A stretch of DNA of 64,000 nucleotides from Chaetoderma sp. LZ-2023a. Its lineage: Eukaryota > Mollusca > Caudofoveata > Chaetodermatida > Chaetodermatidae. The DNA lies in NCBI GenBank assembly GCA_034401795.1, contig CM067367.1, positions 53,030,269 to 53,094,268 of the forward strand, in the 5' to 3' direction. The stretch's first letter is position 1; each line of letters opens with the position of its first letter. The position numbers and the translations under genes were made by a program. Shown one piece after another: positions 36,141-60,219 of this stretch. Below the pieces are notes generated by a model. It did not search any database and was not told the DNA's origin. It worked only from the letters and a program-made list of their open reading frames with translations.

Positions 36141-36324
36141 TCGTTGGCTCACATCCGGGTATCAGCTGGCTCTCATTCTCTTTACAGACATCGGCTGGTC
36201 GCTTCGTCGTTTTCATCTGATGTTGAATTTAAGTATTCTCAAACGGGAGGCGTTGCTGAAACTGCAGGCACCATAGAACTGAATAACTGAGTAAATTTGG
36301 TCGAAATTGAAGGCGTAGTTTAAA
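36141..36324 (+). other. 5' untranslated part of the zinc-finger gene exon, with uORF
   Basis: Two acceptor-like sites precede the coding start: GTTTCCATTTACAG ending 36140 and CTCATTCTCTTTACAG ending 36187, the second with the better pyrimidine tract. Either makes this a non-first exon, so a further 5' exon and the promoter should lie upstream. An upstream ATG at 36220 opens an 18-codon reading frame that stops at 36274-36276, 48 bp before the main start. uORFs of this kind commonly lower translation of the main frame. Confidence 0.5.
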
Positions 36325-37282: not shown

Positions 37283-37514
37283 GTAAATCGGCCATATGAG
37301 CTTTTCGTTTAATATGTCACCAGGGTAGAATGGCAACATGCTTGTGCCGTCTACTGATATCGACATAATGGCCCAGTTGTCGGGATAATAACATGATTAA
37401 GTGGAATTCTCGAGTTAAAGCAAATTTTCTCAACATTATAAGTACTAACTCGCCCAAGAGTAAATGATGTTGTCAACTTCTTCAGCGGGCGTGTATGTGG
37501 TGTGGTGTGTGTGG

Positions 37515-37515
<1 letters not shown>

Positions 37516-37567
<52 letters not shown>
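37516..37567. repeat. 52-base poly-G homopolymer
   Basis: Fifty-two uninterrupted G, preceded by GTGTGGTGTGTGTGGC. It begins 233 bp after the inferred splice donor. Such a run can fold into G-quadruplexes and is hard to sequence; its length may be an assembly artefact. Confidence 0.9.
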
Positions 37568-37942: not shown

Positions 37943-38110
37943 TTCTCCTTCGATCAATACTCACCATTCTATTACTTCTGATACAGTTAGCCTGGATAGC
38001 TGGGCCCTAGGACTATAGACTTAGCAAGCTTTACCGACTCCTGGAACCGGGTACTCGGATCCCAACTGCCGAGTACCCGTTTGCCATGAAGCACATTCTT
38101 GTTTGCATAG
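37943..38110 (+). repeat. Left inverted terminal repeat of DIRS A
   Basis: It opens TTCTCCTTCGATCAATACTC ACCATTCT and contains GCTTTACCGACTCCTGGAAC and GCCGAGTACCCG. It pairs with the right repeat at 60015-60180 on the opposite strand. Confidence 0.85.
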
Positions 38111-38482
38111 CAACAAGAGACACATGCTTTTTTGCAGTTGGAAGTCTTGAGATTATATTAAGTCTTTTTTCTGTGTAATTGTGATAGCTTTGTGCGCTCT
38201 CTAACGATATATTGGATTACCATGGATGGAGCCGATGATAACCAGGTTGTATAATTCCATGTTATTCCATAGTTAAAAGATTTAGGTCGTCAAATTTCGT
38301 CTGTGTCGCATGTTCCAATTTCTATCCCCAAAGAATCTGGGACGTGTTAACAACGAAATATGCCAGATGCTCGCCTTCCTTCAAACCCCAACAAGCGATC
38401 GGCAGATATGAAATAGGTGTTGGCTTTACAGTGTTTTAACACGAAAATCGGCTGACGTCGTTCTCCGTAAGATCCGAGCGGG

Positions 38483-38490
38483 TGACGTCA
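38483..38490. promoter_or_regulatory. CRE octamer in the DIRS leader
   Basis: TGACGTCA within GCGGGTGACGTCACAC. The same octamer and context are at 42460-42467 (B) and 48037-48044 (C), always about 540-560 bp from the element's left end and upstream of gag. This is conservation among copies of one family; promoter use is inference. Confidence 0.45.
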
Positions 38491-41400
38491 CACCGTGTTA
38501 CTCGGATGTTTATGTGACAAAAATGTTTCATTAATTCGCGCATCTGATTCTAGGTGCTGCGTACTTTAATTGGTACCAGAAAAACATTGGAATTTTCAAG
38601 TTTTGCGTGTTATCACGATCTGTTTGCAATGATCAGTGGTTTCAAAATTCTTGATTTAGATGTGTGGCCTGCGCGGTATCTTGACAGTAGGCGTAACGTT
38701 TGCGCAGTGTGGTCGGTCGATATGATGCTTAAGTTCCTTGCCCAGAAGGACTTGGCAGTGTCTGATGCGGGGTCAGGCGGTCCGAAAGTAAATCGTGGAG
38801 CGTCCGTTTCGGCCCTTGGGGGTGTTCCACATCTGCAACCAGAGGTAGCGGAGATGGCACCGCCAGCGTGGCTTGGTCCTGCTATGCAAGGCTTCTTGCA
38901 TAGCGTTCTTCCCACGCTGGTGTCGTCCCTGCTGCCAAAAGTTGTAGGGCAGTCTCTCCACGTGTTTGATTCGGACCCTGTCCTTGGACAGGGTTCTGGA
39001 CTGGCCACTGAGGGAACCGTCTCGTACGGCCACCTGACAGTCCCGTCGAGCTCCAGACTGATGGGCTCTGTCTCTCTGCGGCTACCTCCGGGTGGTCCAG
39101 TAGCAGTGGCCGGTCCGTCAGGCATGGGAGCCATCCGCCAGGACGGCTCCACGGTTTCCTCATCTAGTGACGACTCTTCGGGATCTGAAGATGAGGAAGC
39201 CGAGGAGGAGAGATTGCTGCGGCCTGTGATGCCGCGGGTGGAGAGCATGGAAGTCGATTCCATCCTGGACGGAACCGTCCTCCACCTGTCTGGCTTGGCG
39301 CAAGCCAGGGCAGTGGCTCCGCTTGTGGTTGAGGCCACTCCGGGACCGGGCACCCGTGTTTGGCCACAGTTCTTCAACCGCTATGGGTCGCATGGTTTTC
39401 CGTGCGGGCCTACTTCATGGACTTGTGTGTTCCATGGGGTGGTGGCGGAACCGTACGGTACCGGAGGAGTTTCTGACATATCAGCAATGGCTCCTAGCCG
39501 GGAGGCCGTTGCTGGTAGGGCCGTGAACATGTCAACGAGTGACGTGTTCACGGGAGTGTCCTCCTCAGAGACAGATTGGTCTAAGGCTATGGCTTGGCTA
39601 GCCAGGGGAGACCTGTCTGTGGTTCCGACCACAGCCGAGGAGGATGCACCCCATCCATCGGTGGCATCGATTACGATGGGGATCTTGCCCGCATCCCGGA
39701 TCCAGTCTATTGGACTGGATCCAAGGTTTATGGAGTTGCTTGATGCTATTTATAGCAAACAACTCCTGACCAAGGGCTAGCTTCCTGCGGCCTCCAGGGA
39801 GGTGCGGGCGAGGTGTCGCATTCGACGGGGGAATACGACAGGTATGGTGTTGTCCCGTCGGTCACCAAGGATGACCGCTGGGTACTGGGTGTCCAGAGTG
39901 CTGGAGCGGGTGTCCCCACCCCGGCACTGGTGGACAAGGCTGAGGTACACCATGATGAAGTCCTGTCCCTAGGGGGTGAGGGCAGCAATGAGTGCTGTCA
40001 ACCACTCTTATCGCCGTCTTCAGTCGGTGTGGGCTGAAGCGGGGGCAGGCCACCCTGTGCCACCTATGGCACTTTCGTGCGTTAATGACGGCCTGGTGCT
40101 GTCTATGGACGCATTGACAATGGTGCAGGCACGTGTGACTAAGTCCAGGAGGCAGATGGTCCTTGACCATATGCGTCCAGCTACTGCCGTCAGAGAGCAT
40201 CTTCTTGGGATGCCCCTGACAGGCCCTAGCATCTTTGGTGGCCAAGCGCGGGCCATCTTAGAGGACACGGCCAGAATTGCGCAGAATCGGTTGGTGGTTA
40301 ATCTGCAGCTAGAGCTAGTGCGTCAAGCGCACGCACTAGGGGCTGTAGCCAAGCCGCTGAGCGGACAACCTTCTAAGAAGCAGAAAAAGCACAAAAGCAA
40401 GGCGATGTGCTGCTTCTACTGGGTTTTCTCAGCCGCCTTCGGCGAAGAAAGCCAAGAAGGTTGTGGAGGCCCCTACCCTCCCCAATGTTTCTCCTTATCG
40501 CCCGGGAGGTGGGAAGGGGAAGGGTAAGTCCTCAACGGGCAGAAGGAAAGGAGCGAATCGTACCTGAGGGTATGAGGGCTCCCTTCGTATCTGCCTGGAC
40601 CGCACCTGTGCGACAGGAACAGCGGTGCCAGTTAGACCAGCCAAGGCAAGACCAAAATGGTTCTCACTCTCTCGTCAAGAGAGGGGGGGGGTGGTCGGGG
40701 GTGGAGCAGATCGTGAGCCAGACACCCCTATTAGGCGTCGATGTGTCTATAGCGGGTGGAAGGCTCATGCATTTCGTCGAGGATTGGCGAGGTGTGACGT
40801 AAGACAGTCTGGTCCTGGGATGGTTATCCCAGGGGTACATGCCAGAGTTGTGGGATTTTCCACCACAGAATCTGTCTTTGGCACCTGTCTGGACACCCGT
40901 ACCAAGGGAACCAGACAAGTTAGAAGCCATTCAAAACGAAGTGCCAGGTTTGCTTCTGAAGGGAGCAATAAAACCAGCAAACCGGAACACTCCAGGCTTC
41001 TATTCAAACATGTTCCTTGTCCCCTAGAGCACAGGGGGATGGAGACCGGTACTCAATCTCAGGCCATTAAATAGGTTTTTCCATACGCCTCGGTTTCAGA
41101 TGGAAACTCCGAGGTCAGTAATGGCAGGACTGAGGAAGGGAATGTGGTGTGTATCGATCCATCTGAAAGATGCATATTTCCACATTCCAATGAACAGGAG
41201 TTGTCACAGGTTTCTGAGATTTGTGTTTCAGAATCAAGTGTGGGAGTTTGTAGTCCTCCCATTCGGCCTGTCGTCAGCTCCACGGGTTTTCACCAGAGTG
41301 GTCCTTGCGGTGACAGCATTTCTCAGAAAAGAGAATGTGGCGCTTCACACCTACATAGACGATTGGCTGATCAAAGCAGACACATCAGCCAGGTTAGAGG

Positions 41401-44400
41401 TGGATACTGCTCTGACTCTGAAGTTGCTTTCAGATCTAGGCTTGATAGTCAACAACGAGAAATCCGAGTTGACACCCACTCAACATTTCATTTATTTAAA
41501 GATGCGATTCGATCTCGAGGATGGCAGGATTTACCCGTCAGAGCCCAGAGTGGTGTCTCTCTTAGCCATCCTCAAGAGTTTTCGATTGGGAAACCACATT
41601 CAGGCGAGGTGGTTTCTTCAGATGCTGGGCATGATCATCTCCATGGAGCAGGTAATCCCGTACGCTGCTCTGATGCGAAGACCTATCCAGTTCTATCTGA
41701 TGTCTCTGTGGAAACAGAGAACAGAACCCCTGTCAAAACTGGTGCCAGTTTTCGAGCCAATAATGTCGCATCTTGTATGGTGGAAAAAGCGTCAGAATCT
41801 CCTAGTAGGAGTTTCGCTGCACCTACCCCACCCCCAGCTGTCCGTGTACACGGATGCATCGCTGGATGGATGGGGGTGGGGCCTGCCTGGGAGAACACCA
41901 GTTCTCCTTCGATTAATACTCACCATTCTGTTACTTTCTGATACACAGCTGGCCCTGACAGCTGGCTCTAGGACTATAGACTTAGAAAGCTTTACCGACT
42001 CCTTGGAACCGGGTACTCGGCTCCCAACTGCCGAGTACCCGTCTACCATAGAGCTCATTCTTGTTTGCATAGCGACAATAGCCGTCCATGGGGTTTTTTT
42101 TGCAGGAGAAAGATTAAAGTTTTTGAAAAGAAATCTAAGTCTTTTATACTGTGATTTGATAGTTTGTGCGATCTTGAAAGGATCTAACTGGATAAAATGG
42201 AGAATACCGCCAATGATGACCAGGTTGTATTATTCCTTATTATCCATAGTTAAAAGACTTAGGTCTGTAAATTTCGTTGTGTCGCATGTCCCAATTTCTG
42301 ACCCCATAGAATCTGGGACGTGTGCTAACAACGTGATATGCCAGACTATCGCCTTCTTTAAATCCCAACAGGCGATCGGCAGATATGAAAATAGGTGTTT
42401 GCTACGGTATTTCTAACACGAATATCGGCTGACGTCGTTCTCCGTAGGGTCCTAGCGGGTGACGTCACACCCGTGATGCTCGGATGTTTATGTGAAGAAA
42501 GTTTTTTCATTAATTCGCGCATCTTGTTCTGGGTGCTGCGTACTAAAAATGGTACCAGAAAACTTTGGAATGGTCAAGTTTACGTGTGATCACGATCGGT
42601 TTGCAATGATCGGTGGTGTCAAAATTCTTGAGTGATGCGTTGTCTGCGGTTTTACCGTGTGCTACAGCAGTTTGTTTACATTTTGTTGTTTCTTCACATA
42701 TCGTGTCGGCTTTCGTTAGGAGTATAATTTATATTGATTGGTAAATATACCCCGAATGCTATGCGATATGATTCCTGATTCCGTTATACATCCTGGAAGA
42801 TCAATTTATGGGTGTATTTATGCCCGCTTCGTTCTTGTCGTCATAATCAATGCGATCTTTGCTGTAACGTTGCGGGGTGGGGTGCGGGAGGGTTTGCAGT
42901 TAATTTATGGTCAAATTATTTGAAAATTAATTGTCTGCCTTCCACTTTTGTTTCGTTCCGCTGGCTTATTGTAGGTTTGGTTTATAGGCCAAGCCATCCC
43001 CGCCATCATGTGTCGAGTGCCACATATCGTACGGGTTCTATACAAGGACCATGTCTGTTTCCACTGTACTAAGTGTAGTCTTGACAGTAGGTGTAACGTT
43101 TGCGCGGTGTGGTCGGTCGATATGATGCTTAAGTTCCTTGCCAGAAGGACTTGGCAGGGTCTGACGCGGGGTCAGGCAGTCCGAAAGTAAATCGTGGAGC
43201 GTCAGTTTCGGCCCATGGGGGCGTTCCACGTCTGCAACCGGAGGTGGCGGAGATGGCACCGCCGGCGTGGTTTGGTCCGGCTAGGCAAGGTGTCTTGCAT
43301 AGCGTTCTGCCCACGCTGGTGTCGTCCCTCCTGCCAAAAGTTGTAGGGCAGTCTCTCACCATGTTTGATTCGGACCCTGTCCTTGGACAGGGTTCTGGAC
43401 TGGACACCGAGGGAGCCGTTTTGTACGGCCCCCTGGCAGTCACGTCGGGCTCCGGCCTGATTGGTTCTGTCTCTCTGCGGCCACCTCCGTGTGGTCCAGT
43501 AGCGGTGGCCTGTCCGTCAGGCATGGGAGCCGTCCGCCAGGACGGCTCCACGGTTTTCCTTGTCTAGTGACGACTCTTAGGGGTCTGAAGATGAGGAGGC
43601 TGAGGAGGAGAGTGTGCTGCGGCCTGTGAGGTCGCGGGTGGCGAGCATGGAGGTCGATTCCGTCCTGATGGAACCCGACCTCCATCTGTCTGGCCTGGCG
43701 CAAGCCAGGGCAGCGGCTCCGCCCGTGGTTGAGGCCACTCCGGTACTGGGCACCGGTCCCGTGATGGTTGGTTTGCTGCCAACCGCCACGGTGACGGGTG
43801 TGGCCGGCCAGGCATGGTACTCACCTATCTCGCCTGGTCCGGCGGTCAGACATGGGGTGCCGTTGGCGCCCGTGTTTGGCCACGGTTCCTTAACCGCTAC
43901 GGGTCCGCACGGTTTCCGTGCAGGCCTACTCCATGGACTGGTGTGTTCCATGGGGTGGCGGCGGAACCGTACAGTACCGGAGTTCCTGGCATATCAGCAA
44001 TGGCTCCTAGCCGGGAGGCCGTTGCTGGTAGGGCCGTGAACATGTCAATGGGTCTGAGGCTCTGGCTTGGCTAGCCAGGGTGGACCCGTCTGTGGTTTCG
44101 ACCACGGCCGAGGAGGATGTACCCCGTCCATCGGTGCATCGATTAGGACGGGGATCTTGCCCACAGCCCTGATCCAGTCTGTTGGACTGGATCCATGGTT
44201 TATGGTGTTGCTTGATACTATGTATAGCAAACAACGCATGAACAAGGGCCAGCTTCTTGCGGCCTCCATGGAGGTGCGGGCGAGGGGTCGTATTCCACGG
44301 GGGGAATACGACAGGTATGGTGTGGTCCCGTCGGTCACCGAGAATGACCGCTGGGTACTGGGTGTTCAGAGTGCTGGAGCGGGTGGCCCCGGTCCGGCAC

Positions 44401-47400
44401 TTGTGGACAAGTCCCAGGCACACCAGGATGAAGTCCTGTCCCTATGCGATGTGGGTGTGAGGGCAGCTATGAGTGCTGTCAACCAATCGTATCGCCTTGT
44501 TCAGTCGGTGTGGGCTGAAGCGGGGGCAGGCCACCCTGTGCCACCTGTGGCGCTTTCGTGCGTCAATGACGGCTTGGTGCTGTCTATGGACGCACTGGCA
44601 AGGGTGCAGGTGCGTGTGACAAAGTCCAGGAGGCAAATGGTTCTTGACCATATGCATCCGGCTACGGCAGTCAGGGAGCGTCTTCTTGGGACACCCCTGA
44701 CAGGGCCTAGCATCTTCGGTGGCCAGGCGCGGGCCATCCTAGAGGACACTGCCAGCATTGCGCAGAATCTGTTGGCGGTAGGCCTACAGCTGGAGCGAGT
44801 GCGTGCGCTTGCACACACTAGGGGCTGTAGGGAAACCGTTAGCTGTCCAAATTTCGAAGACGCAGAAGAAGCAGAAAGGCAAGGCGAAAGCTAAGCCTAC
44901 TGCGACTTCTGCTTCGTCTGGATTTTCTCAGCCGCCGCCGGCTAAGAAAGCCAGGAAGGTTGTGGAGGCCCCTACCCTCCCCACTGTTGCTCATGATCGC
45001 CCTAGAGGCGGGAAGGGCAGGGGGAGGGGTAAGGGTAAGTCCTCCAAGTGCGGAAAGAAGGGAGCGGATCGTACCCGAGGGTACGAGGGCTCCCTTCATA
45101 TCCGCCTGGACCGCACCTGTGCGACAGGAACAGCGGTGCCGGTTATACCTGCCGAGCCAAGATGGAAATGGTTCTCTCTCGTTAAGAAAGGGGGGGGGGT
45201 GAGCGGACCGCGAGCCGGACAACCCCATTAGACATCGAGGCGTCTGTGGTGGGGGGAAGGGTCATGCGTTTCGTCGAGGCCTGGCGAGGTGTGACGTCAG
45301 ACAGTCTGGTCCCGGGATGGTTATCCCAGGGGTACATGCCGGAGTGGTGGGACTTTCCACCGCAGAATCTGTCTTTGGCACCTGTCTGTACACCCGTACC
45401 ACGGGACCCAGACAAGTTAGAAGCCGTTCAAAACGAAGTGTCGGGTTTGCTTCTGAAGGGAGCAATAAACCCAGCGAACCAGAACACTCCGGGCTTCTAT
45501 TCAATTATGTTCCTTGTCCCCAAGAGCACGGGGGGATGGAGACCCATACTCAATCTCAGGCCATTGAATTGGTTTATCCATACGCCTCGGTTCCAGATGG
45601 AAAAACCGAGGTCTGTAATGGCAGGATTGAGGAAGGGAATGTGGTGTGTGTCGATCGATCTGAAAGATGCATATTTCCACATTCCTATGAACCGGAGTTG
45701 GCACAGGTTTCTGAGATTTGCATTTCAGAATCTAGTATGGGAGGTTACTGTTCTCCCGTTTGGCCTGTCGACAACTCCGTGGGTTTTCACAAGAGTGGTC
45801 CTTGCGGTGACAGCGTTTCTCAGAGAAGAGAACGTGGCGCTACACACCTACATAGACGACTGGCTGCTCAAAGCAGACTCTGCAGCCAGGTTGAACGTGG
45901 ATACTGCTCTGACTCTGAAGTTACTTTCAGATCTAGGCTGGATAGTCAACAAGGAGAAATCCGAGTTGACACCCACTCAACATTTCATTTATTTGGGGAT
46001 GCGATTCAATCTCGAGGAGGGCAGGGTTTACCCTTCAGAGCCCAGAGTGGTGTCTCTGTTAGCCATCCTCAAGAGTTTTCGAGTGGGAAACCACATTCAG
46101 GCGAGGCGGTTTCTTCAGATGCTGGGCATGATGGTCTCCATGGAGCAAGTGATCCTGTACGCTGCTCTGATGCGAAAACCTATCCAGTTGTATCTGATGT
46201 CTGTGGAAACAGAGAACAGAACCCCTGTCAAAACTGGTGCCAGTTTTGGAGCCGATAATATCGCATCTTGCATGGTGGAAGAAGCGCCAGAATCTCCTAG
46301 TAGGTGTTTCGCTGCACCTACCCCACCCCCGGCTGTCCGTGTACACGGATGCATAGCTGGAGGGGTGGGGGGCCTGCCTGGGAGAACACCAGGTCTCGGG
46401 CACATGGGCTTTCCAAGAGAGCCAGCTGCATATCAATCTGTTGGAAATGATGGCAGTGGAACTGGCATTGGAAAAGTGTCTTCCAAAAGTCAGGGGCAAG
46501 GTGATATTGATACGGTCGGACAACTCGACAGTAGTATCATACATAAATCGCCAAGACAGGACCAAGTCACCCACACTATGTTTGAAAGTGTGGCACTTGA
46601 TTCAATGGTGCAGGAATTACTCGGTTGTTTTGAAAGCAGCTCATATTCCTGGGCGATTGAACATTCTGGCGGATGCTTTGTCTCGCAGACAGAGAATTCT
46701 GCCAACAGAATGGTCTCTCAACCCTCCAGTTCTTCACAGGATCTTCGAGCATTGGGGCAAACCCAATGTGGACTTGTTCGCCACAAGGGAAAATGTTCAA
46801 ATCATGACTTATGTCTCGCCGATTCCAGATCCTAATGCCGTCGATACAGATGCTCTGGCGTTAAGCTGGAGAGGGATGCACGCTTACGTGTACCCACCCA
46901 CCATTCTTCTACCGAAGATATTGGTGAAGATCAGGGAGGAACCGTGCCTGGTCCTGCTAATAGCGCCATTTTGGCCCAGCAGGGCGTGGTTCACGGATCT
47001 TCGAGATCTGCTGGTGGAAAATCCAGTGCAGTTACCAGAGATTCCGAACATAATCTCCCAGGCCAAGGGACGCTTCCTACACGAGCATACCGCATTGTTC
47101 AAATTGACTGCGTGGATGTTATCAAACAAGGTTCCACGTCGGAGGCCTTTTCTCGACAAGCTGCAGATTTCATCACAGCTGCGAGGAGGTCAACATTCAA
47201 GTCATATAACAACAAGGTTAACAGATTTGCAGACTGGTATGAAGAAAAGGGTATTGATACCTTTCATTCCACTATTCAGCAAGTAGCAGATTTTCTCTGT
47301 GAGCTGTTCTTTTTAGGACTAGCTCCTGTCACAATTGCTGGATACAAGTCCGCTTTAGGCCCAGTTAAATGTGATGGTGAAGTGAATAAGCAATCTCCGA

Positions 47401-47497
47401 CCGAGACAACTGGTAGTCATTCCAGCCTGTCTATCTTTAGTGCTTAATGTACTGGCCAAGCACCCTTTCCAACCGTTGCGTTCGGCTAGTCTAAAGC

Positions 47498-47665
47498 TTC
47501 TCCTTCGATCAATACTCACCATTCTGTTACTTCTGATATACAGCTGGCCCTGACAGCGGCTCTAGGATTATAGACTTAGAAAGCTTTACCGACTCCTGGG
47601 AACCGGGTACCCGGCTCCCCACTGCCGAGTACCCGTTTACCATAGAGCTCATTCTTGTTTGCATA
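47498..47665 (+). repeat. Left inverted terminal repeat of DIRS C
   Basis: It pairs with 54415-54570 on the opposite strand: GCTTTACCGACTCCTGGGAA, CCGGGTACCCGGCTCCCCAC and GCCGAGTACCCGTTTACC are mirrored exactly. The outermost 12 bases (TTCTCCTTCGAT) are unique to this side, as in other DIRS elements. Confidence 0.9.
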
Positions 47666-48620
47666 GCAACAAGTGCAATACATGCTTTTCGCATTAGGGA
47701 TTTTAGTGTTTTTTAAAAAGATTCTAAGTCTTTAATCGGTGATAGTTTGTGCGCTAAAGGAATAACTAAGGACTATGGAGAATACCGCCCAAGATAACCA
47801 GGTTGTATTGTTCTTTATATCCATAGTTAAAAGACTTAGGTCTCTAAATTTCGTTGTGTCGCATGTTCCAATTTCTAACCCCATAGAATCTGGGACGTGT
47901 GCTAGCAACGATATATGCCAGACGATCGCCTTCTTTAAACCCCAACAGGCGATCGGCAGATATGAAAATAGGTGTTTGCTACGGTATTTCTAACACGAAT
48001 ATCGGCTGACGTCGTTCTCCGTAGAATCCGAGCGGGTGACGTCACACCCGGTCACTCGGATGTTTATGTGAAGAAAAATTTTTTCATTAATTCGCGCATC
48101 TTATTCTGGGTGCTGCGTACTAAAAAATGGTACCGGAAACTTTAGAATGATCAAGTTTTTCGTGTGATCACGATCGGTTTGCAATGATCGGTGGTTTCAA
48201 AATTCTTGAGTAGATGCGTGGTCTGCGGTTTTACCGTGTGAGACAGCAGTTGTTATACATTTTGTTGTTTTCTTCACATATCGTGCTGCGTTCGTTAGGA
48301 GTATAATTTATATTGATTAGTAAATATACCCTGAATGCTATGCGATATGATTCCTGGAGCCGTTACACATCCTGTAGGATCTATTATGGGTGTGTTGTGC
48401 CCGCCGCGTTCTTGTCGTCATAATCAATGCGATCGTTGTTGTAACGTGGCGGGGTGGGGTGCGGGAGGTTACGGTTAATTTATGAGTCAAAATATTTGAA
48501 AATTAATTGTCTGCCTTCCATCCGTGTCTCGTTCCGCTTGTTTATTGTAGGTTTGTGCTTATTTTATAGGCCAAGCCAGCCCCGCCATCATGTGACGACT
48601 GCCATAAGTTTGTCCGTGTT

Positions 48621-50702: not shown

Positions 50703-52917
50703 GGGTACGCAAGCTCCCTTCATATCCGCCTGGACCGCACCTGTGCGACAGGAACAGCGGTGCCAGTTATACCCGTCGTGCCTAGAACGAAATGGTTCTC
50801 ACTCTCTCTCGTTAAGAAAGAGGGGGGGGCGGACTGCGAGCCGGACAACCCCGTTAGACGTCGAGGCGTCTATGGTGGGTGGAAGGCTCATGCGTTTCGT
50901 CGAGGCTTGGCGAGGTGTGACGTCAGACAGTCTGGTCCTGGGATGGTTATCCCAGGGTTACATGCCGGAGTGGTGGGACTTTCCGCCGCAAAATCTGTCT
51001 TTGGCACCAGTCTGGACACCCGTACCAAGGGAGCCAGACAAGTTAGAAGCCGTTCAAAAGGAAGTGTCGGGTTTGCTTCTGAAGGGAGCAATAAAACCAG
51101 CAAACCGGAACACTCCAGGCTTCTATTCAAACATGTTCCTTGTCCCCAAGAGCACGGGGGGATGGAGACCCATACTCAATCTCAGGCCATTAAATTGGTT
51201 TATCCATACGCCTCGGTTCCAGATGGAAACACCGAGGTCGGTAATGGCGGGATTGAGGAAAGGAATGTGGTGTGTATCGATCGATCTGAAAGATGCATAT
51301 TTCCACATTCCGATCAATCGGAGTTGGCACAGGTTTCTGAGATTTGCGTTTCAGAATCAAGTATGGGAGTTTACAGTTCTCCCGTTTGGCCTGTCGACAG
51401 CTCCGAGGGTTTTCACAAGAGTGGTCCTTGCGGTGACAGCGTTTCTCAGAAAAGAGAACGTGGCGCTACACACCTACATAGACGACTGGCTGCTCAAGGC
51501 AGACTCGGCAGCCAGGTTGAACGTGGATACTGCTCTGACTCTGAAGTTACTTTCAGATCTAGGCTGGTTAGTCAACGAGGAGAAATCCGAGTTGACACCC
51601 ACTCAACATTTCGTTTATTTGGGGATGCGATTCGACCTCGAGGAGGGCAGGGTTTACCCGTCAGAGCCCAGAGTGGTGTCTCTGTTAGCCATCCTCGGGA
51701 GTTTTCGAGTGGGAAACCACATTCAGGCGAGGCGGTTCCTTCAGATGCTGGGCATGATGGTCTCCATGGAGCAGGTTATCCCGTACGCTGCTCTAATGCG
51801 AAGACCTATCCAGTTGTATCTGATGTCTCTGTGGAAACAGAGAACAGAACCCCTGTCAAAACTGGTGCCAGTTTTGGAGCCGATAATATCGCATCTTCTA
51901 TGGTGGAAACAGCGTCAGAATCTCCTAATAGGGGTTTCGCTGCACCTACCCCACCCCCAGCTGTCCGTTTACACGGATGCATCGCTGGAAGGGTGGGGTG
52001 CCTGCCTGGGAGAACACCAGGTCTCGGGCACATGGACTCTCCCGGAGAGTCAGCTGCATATCAATCTGTTGGAAATGATGGCAGTGGAACTGGCGTTGGA
52101 AGAATTCCTTCCGATGATCAGGGGCAAGGTGATATTGATACGGTCGGACAATTCGACAGTAGTATCATATATAAATCGCCAAGGAGGGACCAGGTCGCCC
52201 ACCCTGTGCATCAGGGTGTGGCACTTGATTCAATGGTGCAGGAATTACTCGGTTGTTTTGAAAGCAGCTCATATTCCTGGCCGATTGAACATTCTGGCGG
52301 ATGCTTTGTCTCGCAGACAGAGAATCCTGCCAACAGAATGGTCCCTCAACCCTCCAGTTCTACGACGGATCTTCGAGCATTGGGGCAAACCCAACGTGGA
52401 CTTGTTCGCCACAAAGGAAAATGCTCAAATCATGACATATGTCTCGCCGATTCCAGATCCAAATGCCGTCGATACAGACGCTCTGGCGATAAGCTGGAGA
52501 GGGATGCACGCTTACGCGTATCCACCCACCATTCTTCTACCGAAGGTATTGGTGAAGGTCAGGGAGGAACCGTGCCTGGTCCTGCTAATAGCGCCGTATT
52601 GGCCGAGCAGGGCGTGGTTCACGGATCTTCTAGATCTGCTGGTGGAAAATCCTGTGCAGTTGCCCGAGATTCCGAACATAATCTCCCAGGCCAAGGGACG
52701 CTTCCTACACGAGCGTCCCGAAATGTTCAAATTGACTGCGTGGATGTTGTCAAACAACGTTCCACGTCGGAAGGCTTTTCTCGACAGGCTGCTGATTTCA
52801 TCGCGGCTGCGAGAAGGAGGTCAACCTTCAAGTCATATAACAACAAGGTTAACAGATTTGCAGACTGGTGTGAAGAAAAGGGTATTGATACCTTTCAATC
52901 CACTATTCAGCAAATAG
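50608..52917 (+). CDS. DIRS C reverse transcriptase / RNase H ORF, 769 codons
   Basis: The frame overlaps the end of gag by 95 bp. RT motifs run in order: KPANRNTPGFYSNMFLVPKS, GWRPILNLRPLNWFI, CVSIDLKDAYFHIPI, FTVLPFGLSTAPRVFTRVV and the catalytic box YIDD at 290-293. RNase H follows with VYTDASLEGWG (first Asp 457), LLEMMAVELALEE, RSDNSTVVSYINRQ and ADALSRR. The last 150 residues (DLFATKENAQIMTYVSPIPD onward) are the extension typical of DIRS polyproteins. It copies element RNA into DNA in the element's particle or nucleus. The start used is the first ATG; true initiation could differ, and gag overlap suggests recoding or internal initiation, as known for DIRS elements. Confidence 0.9.
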   Translation: MLLLTALEVVRARGRVRVRPQRADRRGRSVPEGTQAPFISAWTAPVRQEQRCQLYPSCLERNGSHSLSLRKRGGRTASRTTPLDVEASMVGGRLMRFVEAWRGVTSDSLVLGWLSQGYMPEWWDFPPQNLSLAPVWTPVPREPDKLEAVQKEVSGLLLKGAIKPANRNTPGFYSNMFLVPKSTGGWRPILNLRPLNWFIHTPRFQMETPRSVMAGLRKGMWCVSIDLKDAYFHIPINRSWHRFLRFAFQNQVWEFTVLPFGLSTAPRVFTRVVLAVTAFLRKENVALHTYIDDWLLKADSAARLNVDTALTLKLLSDLGWLVNEEKSELTPTQHFVYLGMRFDLEEGRVYPSEPRVVSLLAILGSFRVGNHIQARRFLQMLGMMVSMEQVIPYAALMRRPIQLYLMSLWKQRTEPLSKLVPVLEPIISHLLWWKQRQNLLIGVSLHLPHPQLSVYTDASLEGWGACLGEHQVSGTWTLPESQLHINLLEMMAVELALEEFLPMIRGKVILIRSDNSTVVSYINRQGGTRSPTLCIRVWHLIQWCRNYSVVLKAAHIPGRLNILADALSRRQRILPTEWSLNPPVLRRIFEHWGKPNVDLFATKENAQIMTYVSPIPDPNAVDTDALAISWRGMHAYAYPPTILLPKVLVKVREEPCLVLLIAPYWPSRAWFTDLLDLLVENPVQLPEIPNIISQAKGRFLHERPEMFKLTAWMLSNNVPRRKAFLDRLLISSRLREGGQPSSHITTRLTDLQTGVKKRVLIPFNPLFSK

Positions 52918-53759
52918 CAGACTTTCTCTGTGAGCTGTTCTTTACAGGACTAGCTCCCGTCACAATTGCTGGATACAAGTCAGCTTTGGCATCAGTTATC
53001 CCTTGTCTAGCCAACAGGGATAGTCCAGAGGTGGCCCAGTTAAACGTGATGTTGAAGGGAATGAGCAATCTCCGACCGAGACAACCGGTAGTCATTCCAG
53101 CCTGGAGTCTATCTTTAGTGCTTAATGTACTGGCCAAGCACCCATTCGAACCGTTGCGTTCGGCTAGTCTAAAGCATTTGACTCTAAAGGCGGTCTTTCT
53201 ATTGGCAGCTTCCTCAGCTAGAAGGCGCAGTGAGATCCATGCGCTTTCGGCAGAGAGGAACCGATTTATTGTTTCTGGAGAAGGTCTGCGTCTTCTGCCA
53301 AGAGCAGAATTTATGTCAAAGAACCAATCTTTGAGATATCCCGGCAAACCGATCATTATACCGAAGTTAACCAGGTTTGATCGTGATGCCAGTGTCTGGT
53401 GCCCGGTCCGTGCTTTGACTAAGTACAAGAAACGGACTGACTCGTTACGGTCGAACGATAGACATCTGTGGATCTGCCATAAAAAGCCTTATGGCGCCGC
53501 ATCCATGGATACTATCTCTCGTTGGGTGGTCGAATGCATTCAAACTACTCATGAGATGGCGACTGGGCACCAGGTGCAGGGCGTAAGGGCACACGATGTT
53601 AGAGGAATAGCCGCCTCGACCGCCCTTTACAATGGTGTTCCGTTAGAGGACATCATGGCCGTTGCACAATGGCACTGTGAGTCCTCATTTACGGATTACT
53701 ATATGAGGGATGTGTCAGACTCAGCCAATCCACTCGCTTTAGCTGTTTTGAAACGATAG
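50760..53759 (+). CDS. DIRS C tyrosine recombinase ORF, open for 999 codons
   Basis: The recombinase domain occupies roughly residues 680-999: SAM-like N-terminal text (STFKSYNNKVNRFADWCEEK, ADFLCELFFTGLAPVTIAGY), then the catalytic set R (ARRRSEI, about 821), HxxR (HDVR, 945-948) and Tyr (SSFTDYYMRDV, 980-981). The enzyme is thought to insert the circular DNA form without target duplication. The preceding 2 kb of the same frame overlaps the RT ORF in another frame; large RT/recombinase overlap is known in DIRS elements, but whether that part is translated is unknown. The domain itself closes at the stop 53757-53759. Confidence 0.85.
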   Translation: MPVIPVVPRTKWFSLSLVKKEGGADCEPDNPVRRRGVYGGWKAHAFRRGLARCDVRQSGPGMVIPGLHAGVVGLSAAKSVFGTSLDTRTKGARQVRSRSKGSVGFASEGSNKTSKPEHSRLLFKHVPCPQEHGGMETHTQSQAIKLVYPYASVPDGNTEVGNGGIEERNVVCIDRSERCIFPHSDQSELAQVSEICVSESSMGVYSSPVWPVDSSEGFHKSGPCGDSVSQKRERGATHLHRRLAAQGRLGSQVERGYCSDSEVTFRSRLVSQRGEIRVDTHSTFRLFGDAIRPRGGQGLPVRAQSGVSVSHPREFSSGKPHSGEAVPSDAGHDGLHGAGYPVRCSNAKTYPVVSDVSVETENRTPVKTGASFGADNIASSMVETASESPNRGFAAPTPPPAVRLHGCIAGRVGCLPGRTPGLGHMDSPGESAAYQSVGNDGSGTGVGRIPSDDQGQGDIDTVGQFDSSIIYKSPRRDQVAHPVHQGVALDSMVQELLGCFESSSYSWPIEHSGGCFVSQTENPANRMVPQPSSSTTDLRALGQTQRGLVRHKGKCSNHDICLADSRSKCRRYRRSGDKLERDARLRVSTHHSSTEGIGEGQGGTVPGPANSAVLAEQGVVHGSSRSAGGKSCAVARDSEHNLPGQGTLPTRASRNVQIDCVDVVKQRSTSEGFSRQAADFIAAARRRSTFKSYNNKVNRFADWCEEKGIDTFQSTIQQIADFLCELFFTGLAPVTIAGYKSALASVIPCLANRDSPEVAQLNVMLKGMSNLRPRQPVVIPAWSLSLVLNVLAKHPFEPLRSASLKHLTLKAVFLLAASSARRRSEIHALSAERNRFIVSGEGLRLLPRAEFMSKNQSLRYPGKPIIIPKLTRFDRDASVWCPVRALTKYKKRTDSLRSNDRHLWICHKKPYGAASMDTISRWVVECIQTTHEMATGHQVQGVRAHDVRGIAASTALYNGVPLEDIMAVAQWHCESSFTDYYMRDVSDSANPLALAVLKR

Positions 53760-54256
53760 TTAGTGACCACACTGCTTTTCCCCTTTTTTCACTTTGGTAA
53801 GAAAAGAACCTAAAGCAGGCATGGTCAAGCGAGAGGATGTCAACCAGATTGTGTCACTGATGGCCGAACCGGTGAATGGTTGTAGGCGGTACGTCTGAAG
53901 TCCTGTTATCATAAGGTAATTCAACAAGTGAGAGTTTTTTGTATTATGTATATGTATCATGTTCATTCATCGTATATATTCATGCTCATTCCAGGCTAAT
54001 ACAAGCGATATGCAGGGAGTAGTTAACCCTCTTGGCATATTGGTGTTTTCAGGCGAGATACATGTTCGTTAGTTCTCTCCCTTTTCTTAGGAGGAAAAAG
54101 GGGGGGGGGCTGTGACGCGAATGTGATTCGGTTCCGTGAACTTGACGGTCCTTTTAGGTCTCCGTTAGTCAAGTTTGAAGTCTAAAATCTTTCTCCAAGG
54201 GGCAAAATTAGCATGTATGGCTTGCCCCTTCCCACCAGGTGACTGATCAAATCTGG

Positions 54257-54360
54257 TGTATATCAGAAGTAACAGAATGGTGAGTATTGATCGAAGGAGA
54301 ATGCAGGAAATGTCAATTTCCCTTTCTCCGAGATCTAACAATACTCACCATTCTGTTACG
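54257..54360. repeat. Internal complementary region of DIRS C
   Basis: TATCAGAAGTAACAGAATGG through GATCGAAGGAGAA is the reverse complement of the element's left tip. It is joined directly to TGCAGGAAATGTCAATTTCC through GAGATCTAACAATACT, the reverse complement of its right tip. The region therefore reproduces the joined ends of a circular form, which is the defining DIRS feature used as template for completing the ends. Equivalent regions are at 55672-55776 (B) and 59872-59976 (A). Confidence 0.92.
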
Positions 54361-54399
54361 GACCCAGCCTCCCAGCCCCACGGAGGCAAGCCATAGTTT

Positions 54400-54607
54400 T
54401 CTCTTGTTTGGTGGCTATGCAAACAATATGAGCTCTATGGTAAACGGGTACTCGGCAGTGGGGAGCCGGGTACCCGGTTCCCAGGAGTCGGTAAAGCTTT
54501 CTAAGTCTATAATCCTAGAGCCGCTGTCAGGGCCAGCTGTATATCAGAAGTAACAGAATGGTGAGTATTGTTAGATCTCGGAGAAAGGGAAATTGACATT
54601 TCCTGCA
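54400..54607 (-). repeat. Right inverted terminal repeat of DIRS C
   Basis: The reverse strand matches the left repeat; the outermost 38 bases (GTTAGATCTCGGAGAAAGGG and on to CCTGCA) are unique to the right side. The same right tip ends B (56021) and, as CCTTCA, A (60219). Confidence 0.9.
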
Positions 54608-55671
54608 ATTTGACTCTAAAGGCGGTCTTTCTATTGGCAGCTTCCTCAGCTAGAAGGCGCAGTGAGATCCATGCCCTTTCAACAGAGCGGGGCCGATTTA
54701 TTGTCTCCGGAGAGGGTCTGCGTCTACTGCCAAGAGCAGAGTTTATGTCAAAGAATCAATCTTTGAGATATCCCGGCAAACCGATCATAATACCGAGGTT
54801 AACGAGGTTTGATCGTGATGCCAGTGTCTGGTGCCTGGTCCGTGCTTTGACTAATTACAAAAAATGGACAGACTCGTTACGGTCGAATGATAGACATCTG
54901 TGGATCTGCCATAGGAAGCCATATGGCGCCGCATCCATGGATTCTATCTCTCGTTGGGTAGACGAATGCATTCAGACTACCCATGAGATTGCGACTGGGC
55001 ACCAGGTGCAATGCGCAAGAGCACACGATGTTAAAGGAATGGCCTCCTCGACTGCCCTTTACAATGGTGTTCCGTTAGAGGACATCATGGCTGTTGCACA
55101 ATGGCACTGTGAGTCCTCTTTCACGGATTACTATATGAGGGATGTGTCAGACTCCGCCAATACACTCGCTTTAGCTGTTTTGAAACGATAGTTAAACGAC
55201 CACACTGCTCTTCTCCCTTTTTTGGCATTTGTAAGAAAGATTTAAGAAGCAGACATGGCCAAGCGAGAGGATGTCAACCAGATTGTGTCACTGATGGCCG
55301 GACAAGTGAATGGTTGGATGCTCCACATCTGGAATCCAAATATCATGAGGTAATTCAAGATTGAGAGTTTTTTGTATTATGTCTATATATCATGTTCATT
55401 CATCTTATATATTCATGCTCATTCCCAGGCTGATATATGCAAAGAGCAGTTAACCCTCTTGGCATATTTGTGTTTCAGGCGAGATGCATGTTCGTGAGTT
55501 CTTAGGAGAAAAAGGGGTGGGCGGCAGTGATGCGAATGTGATTCGGTCCCTTTAACTTGACGGTCCTTTTAGGTCTCCATTTGTCAAGTTTAAGTCTAAT
55601 CTCTTTCTCCAAGGGGCAAAAGTAGCAATTGATGGCTTGCCCCTTCCCACCAGGTTACTGTCTAAATCTGG

Positions 55672-55776
55672 TGTATATCAGAAGTAATAGAATGGTGAGT
55701 ATTGATCGAAGGAGAATGAAGGAAATTTCAATTTCCCTTTCTCCGAGATCTAACAATACTCACCATTCTGTTACGG
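55672..55776. repeat. Internal complementary region of DIRS B
   Basis: Same layout as in C: left-tip complement ending GATCGAAGGAGAA, then right-tip complement starting TGAAGGAAATTTCAATTTCC. The right inverted repeat of B follows, to 56021. Confidence 0.85.
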
Positions 55777-57935
55777 ACCCTGCCTCCCAGCCCCACGGAG
55801 GCAAGCCATGGGTATCTCTTGTTTGGTGGCTATGCAAACAATATGAGCTTCATGGCAAACGGGTACTCAGCAGTTGTGATCCGGGTACCCAGCTCCAGGA
55901 GCCGGTAAAGCTTACTACGTCTATAGTCCTAGAGCCAGCTATCCAAGATAGCTTGTATCAGAATTAATAGAATGGTGAGTATTGTTAGATCTCGGAGAAA
56001 GGGAAATTGAAATTTCCTGCAGTCTCGGGTACATGGACTCTCCAAGAGAGCCAGCTGCATATCAATCTGTTGGAAATGATGGCAGTGGAACTGGCATTGG
56101 AAAAGTTTCTTCCAAAGGTCAGGGGCAAGGCGATATTGATACGGTCGGACAACTCGACGGTAGTATCATATATAAATCGCCAAGGCGGGACCAAGTCACC
56201 CACACTATGTATCAAAGTGTGGCACTTGATTCAATGGTGCAGGAATTACTCAATTGTTTTGAAAGCAGCTCACATTCTTGGGTGATTGAACATTCTGGCG
56301 GATGCTTTTTCTCGCAGACAGAGAATTCTGCCAACAGAATGATCTCTCAACCCTCCAGTTCTTCACAGGATCTTCGAGCATTGGGGCAAACCCAACATGG
56401 ACTTGTTCGCCACAAGCAAAAATGCTCAAATCATGACTTATGTCTCGCCGATTCCAGCTCCAAATGCCGTCGATACAGATGCTCTGCCGATAAGCTGGAG
56501 AGGGATGCACGTTTACGCGTACCCACCCACCATTCTTGTACCGAAGATATTGGTGAAGATTAGGGAGGAACCGTGCCTGGTCCTGCTAATAGCACCATTT
56601 TGCCCCAGCAGGGCATGGTTCACGGATCTTCTAGATTTGCTGGTAGAAAATCCAGTGCAGTTATCCGAGATTCCGAACATAATCTCCCAGGCCAAGGGAC
56701 GCTTCCTACACAATGTTCCACGTCGGAAGGCTTTTCTTGACAAGCTGCAGATTTCATCGCAGCTGCGAGAAGGATGTCAACCTTCAAGTGATATACCAAC
56801 AAGGTTAACAGATTTGCAGCCTGGTGTGAAGGAAAGGGTATTGATACCTTTCAATCCACTATTCAGCAAATAGCAGACTCTCTCTGTGAGCTGTTCTTTT
56901 CAGGACTAGCTCCTGTCACAATTGCTGGATACAAGTCAGCTTTGGCATCAGTTATCCCTTGTCTAGCCAACAGGGATAATCCAGAGGTGGCCCAGTTGAA
57001 TGTGATGGTGAAGGGAATGAGCTATCTCCAACCGAGACAACCGGTAGTCATTCTAGCCTGGAGTCTATCTTTGGTGCTTAATGTACTGGCCAAGCACCCT
57101 TTCGAACCATTGCGTTCGGCTAGTCTAAAGCATTTGACTCTAAAGGCGGTCTTTCTATTGGCAGCTTCCTCAGCTAGAAGGCGCAGTGAGATCCATGCAC
57201 TTTCAGCAGAGAGGGGCCGATTTATTGTCTCCGGCGAGGGTCTGCGTCTACTGCCAAGAGCAGAGTTTATGTCAAAGAATCAATCTTTGAGATATCCCGG
57301 CAAACCGATCATTATACCGAAACTAACTAGGTTTGATCGTGATGCCAGTGTCTGGTGCCCAGTCCGTGCTTTGACTAAGTACAAGAAACGGACAGACTCG
57401 TTACGGTCGAATGATAGACATCTGTGGATCTGCCATAAGAAGCCATATGGCGCCACATCCATGGATTCTATCTCTCGTTGGGTAGTCGAATGCATTCAGA
57501 CTACCCATGAGATTGCGACTGGGCACCAGGTGCAATGCGCAAGGGCACACAATGTTAGAGGAATAGCCGCCTCGACCGCCCTTTACAATGGTGTTCCGTT
57601 AGAGGACATCATGGCTGTTGCACAATGGCACTGTGAGTCCTCTTTCATGGATTACTATATGAGGGATGTGTCAGACTCCGCCAATCCACTCGCTTTAGTT
57701 GTTTTGAAACGATAGTTATATGACCACACTGCTCTTCTCCCTTTTTCGGCATTTGTAAGAAAGAATTAAGAAGCAGACATGGTCGAGCGAGAGGGTGTCA
57801 ACCAGATTGTGTCACTGATGGCCGGACAAGTGAATGGTTGGAGGGGCCACGTCTGGAATCCAAATATCATGAGGTAATTCAAGATTGAGAGTTTTTTGTA
57901 TCATGTCTATATATCATGTTCATTCATCTTATATA

Positions 57936-59589
57936 CACCTGTGCAAAAGTTAAGCACCAGCAAAAACAATAGAACGTAGAAACATGATGGTACAACTAGG
58001 CTGCCATACTTTTTGTCCCCGCATTAGCTGACATAATTCCAAGTACGAAATGCACATGCATGCATGACTTCACGCCGCTTGATGTCCGTGCGTGGCGGGA
58101 AACAGCACACGTGTTCAGTTATGTAAAAGTCCAATTTGAGGTGTAGAACATTACATACAGATTTAGGCGACAAGATTAGGAATTTTGTGTTCATGACCGT
58201 GGTTTATTTGTACAGAGAGAATTAGCTCTTGATTGTGAACCGCTATGGCAAGACGAAGGTTAAGTGATCGTGTGAAATGGCAAATCATAGGCATGCATAC
58301 CACTGGTATGTCATGCAGAGAGATTGGCAGACAGCTGAACATTAACCATACTGTAATCAGTCGTTTGATTGCAAAACATGGGCAAACTAACGAGGTGAAG
58401 GACAGGCCTAGATCTGGAAGACCGAAGAAGACTACTGCCCGTGATGATCGAGCCCTAGTACGCCTTGTTAGGAGAGCTCCATTCACCAACAGCAGAGTGC
58501 TCAGCCAGCAATGGGAAACGCGCAATAGAGTGTCAATGTCTACCGTCAAAAGGAGACTGTATGCTGCTGGCATGAAAGCTAGGAGACCTGTCAGACGTCC
58601 TCTCCTCACTGCACACCACAAAGAGGAGCGTCTGAGGTGGTGCAACGAAAGAAGACACTGGAACATGAGATCCTGGAGACGGGTACACTGGTCCGATGAA
58701 AGTCGGTTCCTGCTTCATGCCACAGATGGTCGAACTCGTGTATGGAGGTCCAGACGCACGGCGTACGACCAACGTAACATCATGGAAGATGTTCCATTTG
58801 GTGGAGGTTCCATTATGATATGGGGGTGCATCTCATTTGATTGTAAGCTGGATCTGTTGACTGTACCTGGAACACTAAATGGACAAAGTATCAAGATTCC
58901 ATACTGGATAGAGTTGTGGTCCCTCATTTTGTAAATCATGCACCTGGAACCCACCCTATATTCATGGATGACAACGCCCGACCACATCGTGCTAGAGCTG
59001 TGCATGAATACCTCCGCCAGAATGCCATCGAAACCCTACCATGGCCAGCAAGGAGCCCTGACATGAACCCTATTGAGCGTATCTGGGACATTCTGGGAAA
59101 CATGGTGAGAAGGAGGGATCCTCCTGTGCAGAACCTACAGGAATTAACAGACGCACTCCATCTTGAATGGCAACGAATACCACAATGGCGTATCAGTCGG
59201 TTGGTGACCAGCATGAGACGTCGTGTCCAGTCCATCATCCAGGCACAAGGTGGATATACCCGGTATTAATAATGACAGTCTCAAACTCGTGCACAGATGT
59301 TAAACTTCGTTTTCAGACACCATTAATGACAATCTAGCCACGTGTGTCAACTGTAGGGCAATAGTTGTCAGTTGTGTCAACGTAACCATATTCAGGCCTC
59401 GTTTTCAAGTTCAAACAAAAACATAGTGTTTCCCCACCATCATAATCAGCATTCCTCTAGTTGCATTATTACCTCTTGCACTAAGATGGATGGGTACATA
59501 AATGTTTATGCTATTGCTTTCTTCATAGCACATGAATATACCCTCGCATGTGCGTAAAAATAGGGTGGTGCTTAACTTTTGCACAGGTG
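57936..59589 (+). mobile_element. Tc1/mariner transposon inserted in DIRS A, both ends intact
   Basis: Both ends are CACCTGTGCAAAAGTTAAGC followed by ACC(A), in inverted orientation, 1,654 bp apart. They are flanked by TA (57934-57935 and 59590-59591). B keeps the empty site CATCTTATATATTCATG, confirming a TA duplication. The gene inside is nearly identical to the 29355-30921 copy but carries one frameshift, so this copy has good ends and a broken enzyme. It inserted after A had already integrated. Confidence 0.95.
58245..59269 (+). pseudogene. Tc1 transposase with one frameshift
   Basis: Residues 1-214 match the intact 341-residue enzyme (29675-30700, minus strand) with only a few substitutions. 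At about 58886-58890 one A is missing relative to that copy (GGACAAAGTATC against GGACAAAGATATC). This shifts the frame and ends the first reading frame at 58934. The rest, with D243 (MDDNARPH) and E278 (NPIERIWD), is open in the next frame to 59269. The DNA-binding half and the first catalytic Asp are thus separated from the other two. Only about 2 percent difference separates the copies, so the break is recent. Confidence 0.93.
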
Positions 59590-59871
59590 TATATATTCAT
59601 GCTCATTCCCAGGCTAATATATGCAAAGAGCAGTTAACCCTCTTGGAATATTTGTGTTTCAGGCGAGATGCATGTTCGTGAGTTCTCTCCCTTTACTTAG
59701 GAGAAAAAGGGGGGTGGGTGGGGGCAGTGATGCGAATGTGTTCGGTTCCGTTAACTTGATGGGCCTTTTAGGTCTCCATTAATCAAGTTTAAGTCTAGCT
59801 CTTTCTCCAAGGGGCAAAAGTAGCAATTGATGGCTTGCCCCTTCCCACCAGGTTACTGTCTAAATCTGGGG

Positions 59872-59976
59872 CATATCAGAAGTAATAGAATGGTGAGTAT
59901 TGATCGAAGGAGAATAAAGGAAATTTAAATTTCGCTTTCTCCGAGATCTAACAATACTCACCATTCTATTACGGAC
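59872..59976. repeat. Internal complementary region of DIRS A
   Basis: Left-tip complement ending GATCGAAGGAGAA, then TAAAGGAAATTTAAATTTCG and CAATACTCACCATTCT. The right inverted repeat of A follows, to 60219. Confidence 0.85.
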
Positions 59977-60219
59977 CCAGCCTCCCAGCCCCACGGAGGC
60001 AAGCCATGGGTATCTCCTGTTTGGTGGCTATGCAAACAATATGAGCTTCATGGCATACGGGTACTCGGCAGTTGGGAGTCGACTACCCGGTTCCAGGAGT
60101 CGGTAAAGCTTACTACGTCTATAGTCCTAGGGCCCAGCTATACAGGCTAGCTGTATCAGAAGTAATAGAATGGTGAGTATTGTTAGATCTCGGAGAAAGG
60201 GAAATTGAAATTTCCTTCA

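What the first reader, a model, noticed from the sequence alone, without database searches (positions are those of the whole stretch)
37943..60219. Three DIRS retrotransposons nested one inside another, with a Tc1 on top
A is split by B and B by C. At each joint the outer element stops and resumes at the same base: GAGAACACCAG/GTCTCGGG for B in A, and GTCTAAAGC/ATTTGACTC for C in B. The order of insertion is therefore fixed as A, then B, then C, with the Tc1 after A. All three belong to one family and share orientation. Repeated self-insertion into coding parts of relatives may be chance in a crowded intron or a preference of the recombinase.
Basis: seen in the sequence. Interest (0 to 1): 0.85.

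Follow-up and report, generated by a model that had tools for sequence, protein, structure and literature searches.

The report
Three nested DIRS retrotransposons with Tc1
Three related copies of a jumping gene have landed one inside another, in a genome of unknown host, each joint being exact to the base; this is a clean example of a self-stacking habit already known for this kind of element, and it lets one read two of the landing sites precisely.

Summary
A (37943-60219) is split by B (41902-56021), and B by C (47498-54607). Both inner insertions are lossless, without target-site duplication, and match undisturbed sister copies base for base. A Tc1 (57934-59591, TA duplication) sits in A. 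The elements are DIRS1-like: inverted terminal repeats, an internal region spelling the circle junction, RT/RNase H and tyrosine recombinase; the methyltransferase match is weak. C keeps three long open frames; A and B are broken. Termini against internal template: C 0 mismatches of 103, A 3 of 99, B 6 of 103, consistent with C last.

Best mechanism: recombinase-mediated insertion of a DNA circle at non-homologous points, not homologous recombination.

The exact empty sites add one thing. The published model asks for a 3-bp target identical to the junction (here ATT). The targets of B and C were GGT and CAT, matching only at the third base. In a published table 8 of 26 elements deviate compatibly.

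Self-insertion by DIRS elements is in print. Whether it exceeds chance here cannot be tested without the genome. New member of a known kind; modest interest.

The parts
37943..41901 (+). Element A, left part: left terminus, damaged gag, start of pol (to RNase H)
41902..47497 (+). Element B, left part: left terminus, broken gag and pol, start of the recombinase domain
47498..54607 (+). Element C, 7110 bp, uninterrupted
48621..50702 (+). C: first open frame, 693 codons (gag position; no Pfam match)
50608..52917 (+). C: pol frame, 769 codons: RT (RVT_1 E=6.5e-22), RNase H, weak Dam-like methyltransferase
50760..53759 (+). C: tyrosine-recombinase frame, 999 codons, overlapping pol; recombinase domain in about the last 320 codons
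54257..54359 (+). C: internal complementary region; its reverse complement is the circle junction ...CCTGCA/TTCTCC...
54608..56021 (+). Element B, right part: end of the recombinase gene, 3' region, internal complementary region (55672-55774), right terminus
56022..57933 (+). Element A, middle part, up to and including the left TA of the Tc1 duplication
57934..59591 (+). Tc1-like transposon, 1658 bp, inverted ends TACACCTGTGCA, flanked by TA/TA
59592..60219 (+). Element A, right part: internal complementary region (59873-59972) and right terminus
41901..41902 (.). Joint, B in A (left); partner joint 56021/56022; empty-site triplet GGT
47497..47498 (.). Joint, C in B (left); partner joint 54607/54608; empty-site triplet CAT

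Best explanation
Three successive insertions of one DIRS1-like retrotransposon family. Each new copy was reverse transcribed, its ends were completed from the internal complementary region, the DNA closed into a circle with the junction ...CCTGC-ATT-CTCC..., and the element's tyrosine recombinase exchanged that junction with a short unrelated target. The exchange lay between the first and second base of the ATT core, so the target's first base stays on the left, its second and third on the right, and nothing is duplicated. B entered A in the RNase H part of pol; C entered B in the recombinase gene; a Tc1 entered A's 3' region. SHOWN by sequence: boundaries, lossless joints, empty sites of B and C, the internal junction copy, C's open frames. 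INFERRED: circle intermediate, recombinase catalysis, order in time, activity of C, A's own target.
For: Boundaries and undisturbed sister sites. The internal complementary region equals the reverse complement of the left end followed by that of the right end; C matches at 45 of 45 and 58 of 58 positions, A and B with a few mismatches. RT/RNase H and recombinase domain (PHROG integrase E=2e-9 over residues 6-288 of a 320-residue piece; Phage_int_SAM_1 7.1e-5, above its cut-off for that piece). Ends of the element are joined to internal, non-homologous positions of the resident (element positions 4523/4524 and 5678/5679), which speaks against homologous recombination as the joining step. Age order: mismatches between termini and template C 0/103, A 3/99, B 6/103; frames open in C, broken in A and B.
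Against: B is a mosaic: its closeness to A and to C changes along its length (range statistic reached by 0 of 5000 shuffles and 1 of 5000 block shuffles), its two terminal repeats differ by 26 of 163 bases against 11 of 159 in the older A (p = 0.014), and one shift lies within 500 bp of the C joint (AB/BC sites 8/12 before, 22/6 after, p = 0.014, uncorrected). So B's two halves could have different histories, or conversion or template switching took place. B's divergence is not lower than A's, though B must be later. The right ends of A and B each differ by one base near the tip from what their own internal regions predict. No reads and no second genome were available.
Confidence: 0.93

Rival explanations
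1. Assembly artefact: three dispersed copies of one family misjoined by the assembler.
For: The copies are 87-95% identical, B is mosaic with one shift near the C joint, and no reads are held.
Against: A misjoin would be expected in shared sequence. Here all four inner joints fall at the termini whose position the internal complementary regions predict, and the outer element resumes at the very next base at both sites, which a misjoin would hardly do twice.
Confidence: 0.04
2. Homologous recombination of a DIRS circle with a resident copy, as suggested in print for DIRS-1 clusters (PMC5006619, passage).
For: All elements lie in the same orientation; insertion of DIRS-1 into its own copies is ascribed to recombinase-mediated homologous recombination in that passage.
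Against: Homologous exchange would join like to like and give tandem copies. Here the element's first and last bases are joined to unrelated internal positions. The one place with strong homology to the circle junction, the internal complementary region of about 100 bp (element positions 6760-6863), was not used.
Confidence: 0.02
3. C entered B elsewhere and the B+C composite later moved into A as one unit, so the order is C in B, then B+C in A.
For: The topology alone allows it; B could be moved in trans.
Against: C is younger by its template match (0/103 against 6/103, p = 0.029); a 14-kb composite passing through RNA is unlikely (inference).
Confidence: 0.03
4. The nest shows a targeting preference of the recombinase for sister copies, rather than chance in sequence free of selection.
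For: Self-preference is reported for DIRS-1 (PMC5006619, PMC5633606, passages) and said to occur in zebrafish (PMC5941688, passage). Two of the two later family insertions in the window went into a sister copy, both in the same orientation.
Against: The window was chosen for the nest, so the count is biased. No long motif shared by the target sites was seen, and no stretch of homology to the element's ends. Retention bias in harmless sequence gives the same picture.
Confidence: 0.35

Closest known systems
DIRS1-like retrotransposons of animals (e.g. the elements in Table 3 of Piednoel et al. 2011, PMC3266345; section 10 and passages read)
   Same: Inverted terminal repeats with a right extension, internal complementary region with an ATT junction (the commonest in that table), long overlap of pol and recombinase frames (as in half of the 28), no target-site duplication.
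   Different: C is 7110 bp, longer than any of the 28 elements listed (largest 6283 bp). Two target triplets, known from undisturbed copies, match the junction at one of three bases.
DIRS-1 of Dictyostelium discoideum and its clusters (PMC5006619, PMC5633606; passages read; Cappello et al. 1984 and 1985 seen only as cited)
   Same: Copies inserted into copies; circle-junction copy inside the element.
   Different: There they make complex clusters and about half of the centromeric DNA; here one three-deep nest is seen, at an unknown chromosomal place.
Tc1-like DNA transposons (Tc1/mariner)
   Same: Inverted ends, TA duplication; the second copy at 29350-30924 carries a 341-codon transposase frame (HTH_Tnp_Tc3_2, DDE_3).
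   Different: Nothing unusual seen.

Membership tests
DIRS1-like retrotransposon | Reverse transcriptase and RNase H | tested here: met
   RVT_1 E=6.5e-22; RT_RNaseH 2.9e-5, just under its cut-off; Ty3-type RT/RNase H structures matched over about residues 172-577
DIRS1-like retrotransposon | Tyrosine recombinase instead of an integrase | tested here: met
   On the 320-residue piece: PHROG integrase E=2e-9; SAM-like domain 7.1e-5, above cut-off; catalytic-domain match weak (Phage_integrase E=0.18); XerC E=0.0047, far below its cut-off. On the whole 999-codon frame the SAM-like match was 0.0015, below cut-off. R, HxxR (HDVR) and Y can be read in the frame; that motif is recalled. The predicted model was too poor to use (mean pLDDT 36.8)
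DIRS1-like retrotransposon | Methyltransferase domain after RNase H | tested here: inconclusive
   Pfam Dam E=0.0067, below its cut-off; PHROG DNA methyltransferase E=0.085; no match in NCBIfam for that part; model unusable (pLDDT 33.9)
DIRS1-like retrotransposon | Inverted terminal repeats with a right extension, and an internal complementary region made of both ends | tested here: met
   terminal repeats of about 160 bp, 158 of 160 aligned bases identical in C, one gap
DIRS1-like retrotransposon | No target-site duplication | tested here: met
   2 of 2 insertions with an undisturbed sister copy
Published DIRS1 integration rule (PMC3266345) | Target triplet identical to the 3-bp circle junction | tested here: not met
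   Junction ATT; targets GGT (B) and CAT (C); A's target AAT is inferred from its flanks. 8 of 26 published elements with a 3-nt junction also have a start or end that departs from it. This is a model, not a defining feature of the family
PAT / Ngaro-like elements | Split direct repeats | tested here: not met
   Within C the only direct match over 60 bits is 33 bp between the internal complementary region and the right terminus, a by-product of the inverted repeats
Tc1-like transposon | Inverted ends, TA duplication, DDE transposase | tested here: met
   ends and TA on the copy in A; the transposase was tested on the second copy, 29675-30700

The most novel reading that the evidence does not exclude
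DIRS integration does not need a target identical to the 3-bp circle junction. The exchange falls at a fixed point between core bases 1 and 2, and only base 3 (T), perhaps also the T two bases further on, has to match. That makes almost any sequence a target, the element's own genes included, and would explain both nesting and the untidy end triplets in a published table without homologous recombination.
Probability: 0.4. Interest if true: 0.45.

Novelty: new member of a known kind. Interest (0 to 1): 0.3.

Why it matters
Nested sister copies give what is hard to get for DIRS elements: the target site before insertion, known to the base. Two such sites here contradict the strict 3-bp identity model and speak against homologous recombination as the joining step. 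A genome-wide set of such nests would settle the target rule of an integration pathway that two papers, read in passages, call not experimentally demonstrated or not fully proven (PMC5941688, PMC5633606).

Tried and rejected
Own genome: none is held, so no survey of self-insertion rates or of further empty sites was possible. Relatives: an exact 24-base piece of the internal complementary region in viral contigs, 0 matches; pol in viral contigs, 6 pattern stretches, none confirmed; pol in bacterial and archaeal genomes, 18 stretches, none confirmed. The 326-codon frame near A in viral contigs, 1 stretch, not confirmed.

Fold tests: both models (recombinase domain, methyltransferase part) were single-sequence and of very low confidence; no fold search was run on them because it would mean nothing. 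phmmer of the 999-codon frame against solved structures gave nothing up to E=5.

Host gene: 21 of the 86 frames listed were scanned against Pfam; apart from the Tc1 transposase none gave a match above a cut-off. A weak Thg1 match at 63108-63410 (E=0.018) was not supported by solved structures. Rfam: no match at gathering scores.

Considered and dropped: dating by terminal-repeat difference alone, because B's two ends resemble different relatives (left end close to C, right end nearer A), so their difference is not a clock. Extra constraint on the pol/recombinase overlap: third-position change in the overlap (100/701 A-C, 74/701 B-C) is not clearly lower than in the recombinase-only part (31/265, 35/265), so no claim is made.

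Full report
WHAT IS THERE. The window (64,000 bases, 43.4% G+C, no N) holds three copies of one repeat family on the + strand, nested. Self-alignment and the bases at the joints give A 37943-41901 and 56022-60219, B 41902-47497 and 54608-56021, C 47498-54607. Without inserts they measure 6497, 7010 and 7110 bp. Pairwise identity in ungapped columns: left block A-B 88.4%, A-C 86.8%, B-C 88.8%; middle block 93.5, 92.4, 92.5%; right block 94.8, 90.7, 90.1%. A lacks about 400 bp near its gag start. No further copy of the family was found elsewhere in the window by blastn of 36-62 kb or tblastn of C's proteins.

THE JOINTS. All three copies begin |TTCTCC; B and C end CCTGCA| and A ends CCTTCA|. At B in A the outer sequence reads GAGAACACCAG/GTCTCGGG, and both sister copies, in B at 46392/46393 and in C at 52020/52021, have these bases adjacent. 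At C in B it reads GTCTAAAGC/ATTTGACTC, adjacent in C at 53175/53176 and in A at 57131/57132. So 2 of 2 insertions with an undisturbed copy are lossless and without duplication. For A's own site no undisturbed copy was found in the window. The Tc1 (57934-59591) has TACACCTG ends and a TA duplication; with one TA counted once the site is CATCTTATATATTCATG, which is what B has.

WHY THE BOUNDARIES ARE REAL. Near its right end each copy holds an internal complementary region that is the reverse complement of its left end followed by the reverse complement of its right end: C 54257-54359, B 55672-55774, A 59873-59972. In C the match is 45 of 45 and 58 of 58 bases, and the region spells the circle junction ...CCTGCA/TTCTCC.... 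In A and B the position of the ends is predicted as well, with one differing base near the right tip (A: CCTTCA against a predicted CCTTTA; B: CCTGCA against CCTTCA). A misassembly would hardly hit these termini at four joints.

WHAT THE ELEMENTS ENCODE. C has three long open frames: 48621-50702 (693 codons, gag position), 50608-52917 (769 codons, RT and RNase H) and 50760-53759 (999 codons, overlapping pol in another frame, recombinase domain at its end). The recombinase match is good when the last 320 codons are scanned alone (PHROG integrase E=2e-9) and weak on the whole frame. A methyltransferase after RNase H is only hinted at (Dam E=0.0067, under its cut-off; PHROG methyltransferase E=0.085). 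A and B hold stops and frame changes in these genes. In C's numbering B entered A at pol codon 471 (RNase H domain) and C entered B at about recombinase-frame codon 806, in the recombinase domain.

ORDER AND AGE. Topology gives A before B before C. Because the internal region is thought to template the ends (model in PMC3266345 and PMC5633606, passages), mismatches between them serve as a rough clock: C 0 of 103, A 3 of 99, B 6 of 103, leaving out bases beyond the matching edge and one gap in B; with those counted as aligned they are C 1 of 104, A 6 of 102, B 7 of 104 and a gap. On the trimmed counts C against B is p = 0.029; A against C (p = 0.12) and A against B (p = 0.50) are not distinguishable. 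The long terminal repeats differ by 2 of 160 (C), 11 of 159 (A) and 26 of 163 (B). That B exceeds A goes against a simple clock.

B IS A MOSAIC. Of 904 informative sites in 6328 three-way columns, 360 group A with B, 319 B with C, 225 A with C, and they are not evenly mixed: 0 of 5000 shuffles and 1 of 5000 block shuffles reach the observed range. B's left terminal repeat is nearest to C's left (8 mismatches), its right one nearer to A's right (15) than to C's right (22). Template switching before insertion or later conversion would both do this. One shift lies within 500 bp of the C joint (p = 0.014, uncorrected) and a weaker one near the B joint (p = 0.06); I read them as part of the general patchiness because shifts also occur far from any joint, but this is the main result that does not fit a simple history.

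HOW IT WORKS. The published model (PMC3266345, passages) closes the ends into a circle over a 3-bp junction and recombines it with an identical 3-bp target, leaving no duplication. Here the junction in all three internal regions is ATT. Written as core triplets, the left/right/target values are: B GTT/AGT/GGT, C CTT/AAT/CAT, A ATT/AAT/AAT (the last target inferred). In each, the left triplet is target base 1 plus junction bases 2-3, and the right one is junction base 1 plus target bases 2-3. Core base 3 (T) is shared between target and junction in all three, and it is the only shared core base in B and C; the T two bases on is shared too, as is one base ten to the left. Two or more fully matching columns among the 12 nearest arise in 297 of 20,000 random triples of window sites, a post hoc figure. 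In the published table 26 of 28 elements have a 3-nt junction; 8 of the 26 depart from it, at end base 2 (6), start base 1 (1) or end base 3 (1), none at start bases 2-3 or end base 1. A fixed exchange point between bases 1 and 2 predicts this; if all six positions were equally likely it would be 1 in 256. The one departure at end base 3 (BmDIRS1) goes against a strict need for base 3. Caveat: the way those authors delimited the overlap may favour this pattern by definition.

HOMOLOGY-DRIVEN OR NOT. Homologous recombination is disfavoured as the joining step: element ends are joined to unrelated internal positions 4523/4524 and 5678/5679, while the internal complementary region at 6760-6863, about 100 bp of perfect homology to the circle junction in an intact copy, was not used. 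This says nothing about how the circle found a sister copy.

WHAT IS KNOWN. DIRS-1 preferring its own copies is stated in PMC5006619 and PMC5633606 (passages; the latter adds 'without apparent sequence preference', citing Cappello et al. 1984, which is not held). PMC5941688 (passage) says that many DIRS1 elements appear to insert into pre-existing copies in zebrafish. PMC6387122, PMC9210276, PMC4157794 and PMC2996953 were read in passages only; the passages shown held no list of empty sites. My searches listed no title or abstract start that announces DIRS empty sites from nested copies, but they are full-text word searches of an open-licence library. The 1984 paper, a 2009 centromere paper and a 2020 paper under the DOI I recalled are not held; the 1985 paper was not looked up. 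So absence from print is not claimed.

VERDICT. Preference against chance cannot be decided here.

Noticed in passing
29350-30924 (- strand): Second Tc1 copy, 99.0% identical to the one in A over 1575 bp, with an intact 341-codon transposase frame; the match stops about 87 bp short of one end of the copy in A, so one inverted end appears to be missing.
   Followed up: partly
36319-37299 (+): 326-codon open frame ending about 640 bp upstream of A, with IKxE-like motifs, no Pfam match; may be a host exon.
   Followed up: partly
37516-37567: Run of 52 G between that frame and A; also a run of 25 C at 6521-6545.
   Followed up: no
54580-54603, and the same place in A and B: The right extension outside the terminal repeat holds a small palindrome (GGAAAT-TGAC-ATTTCC in C, TGAA in the centre in A and B; read); at the circle junction GGAGAA and TTCTCC also face each other, as in a recombinase binding site.
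   Followed up: no
41902-47497 and 54608-56021: B is a patchwork of stretches closer to A and stretches closer to C, and its two terminal repeats resemble different copies.
   Followed up: partly
19492-20294: Tandem array of about five 160-bp units, 71% matches.
   Followed up: no
60433-61229: Diverged tandem units about 140-180 bp apart just right of A.
   Followed up: no
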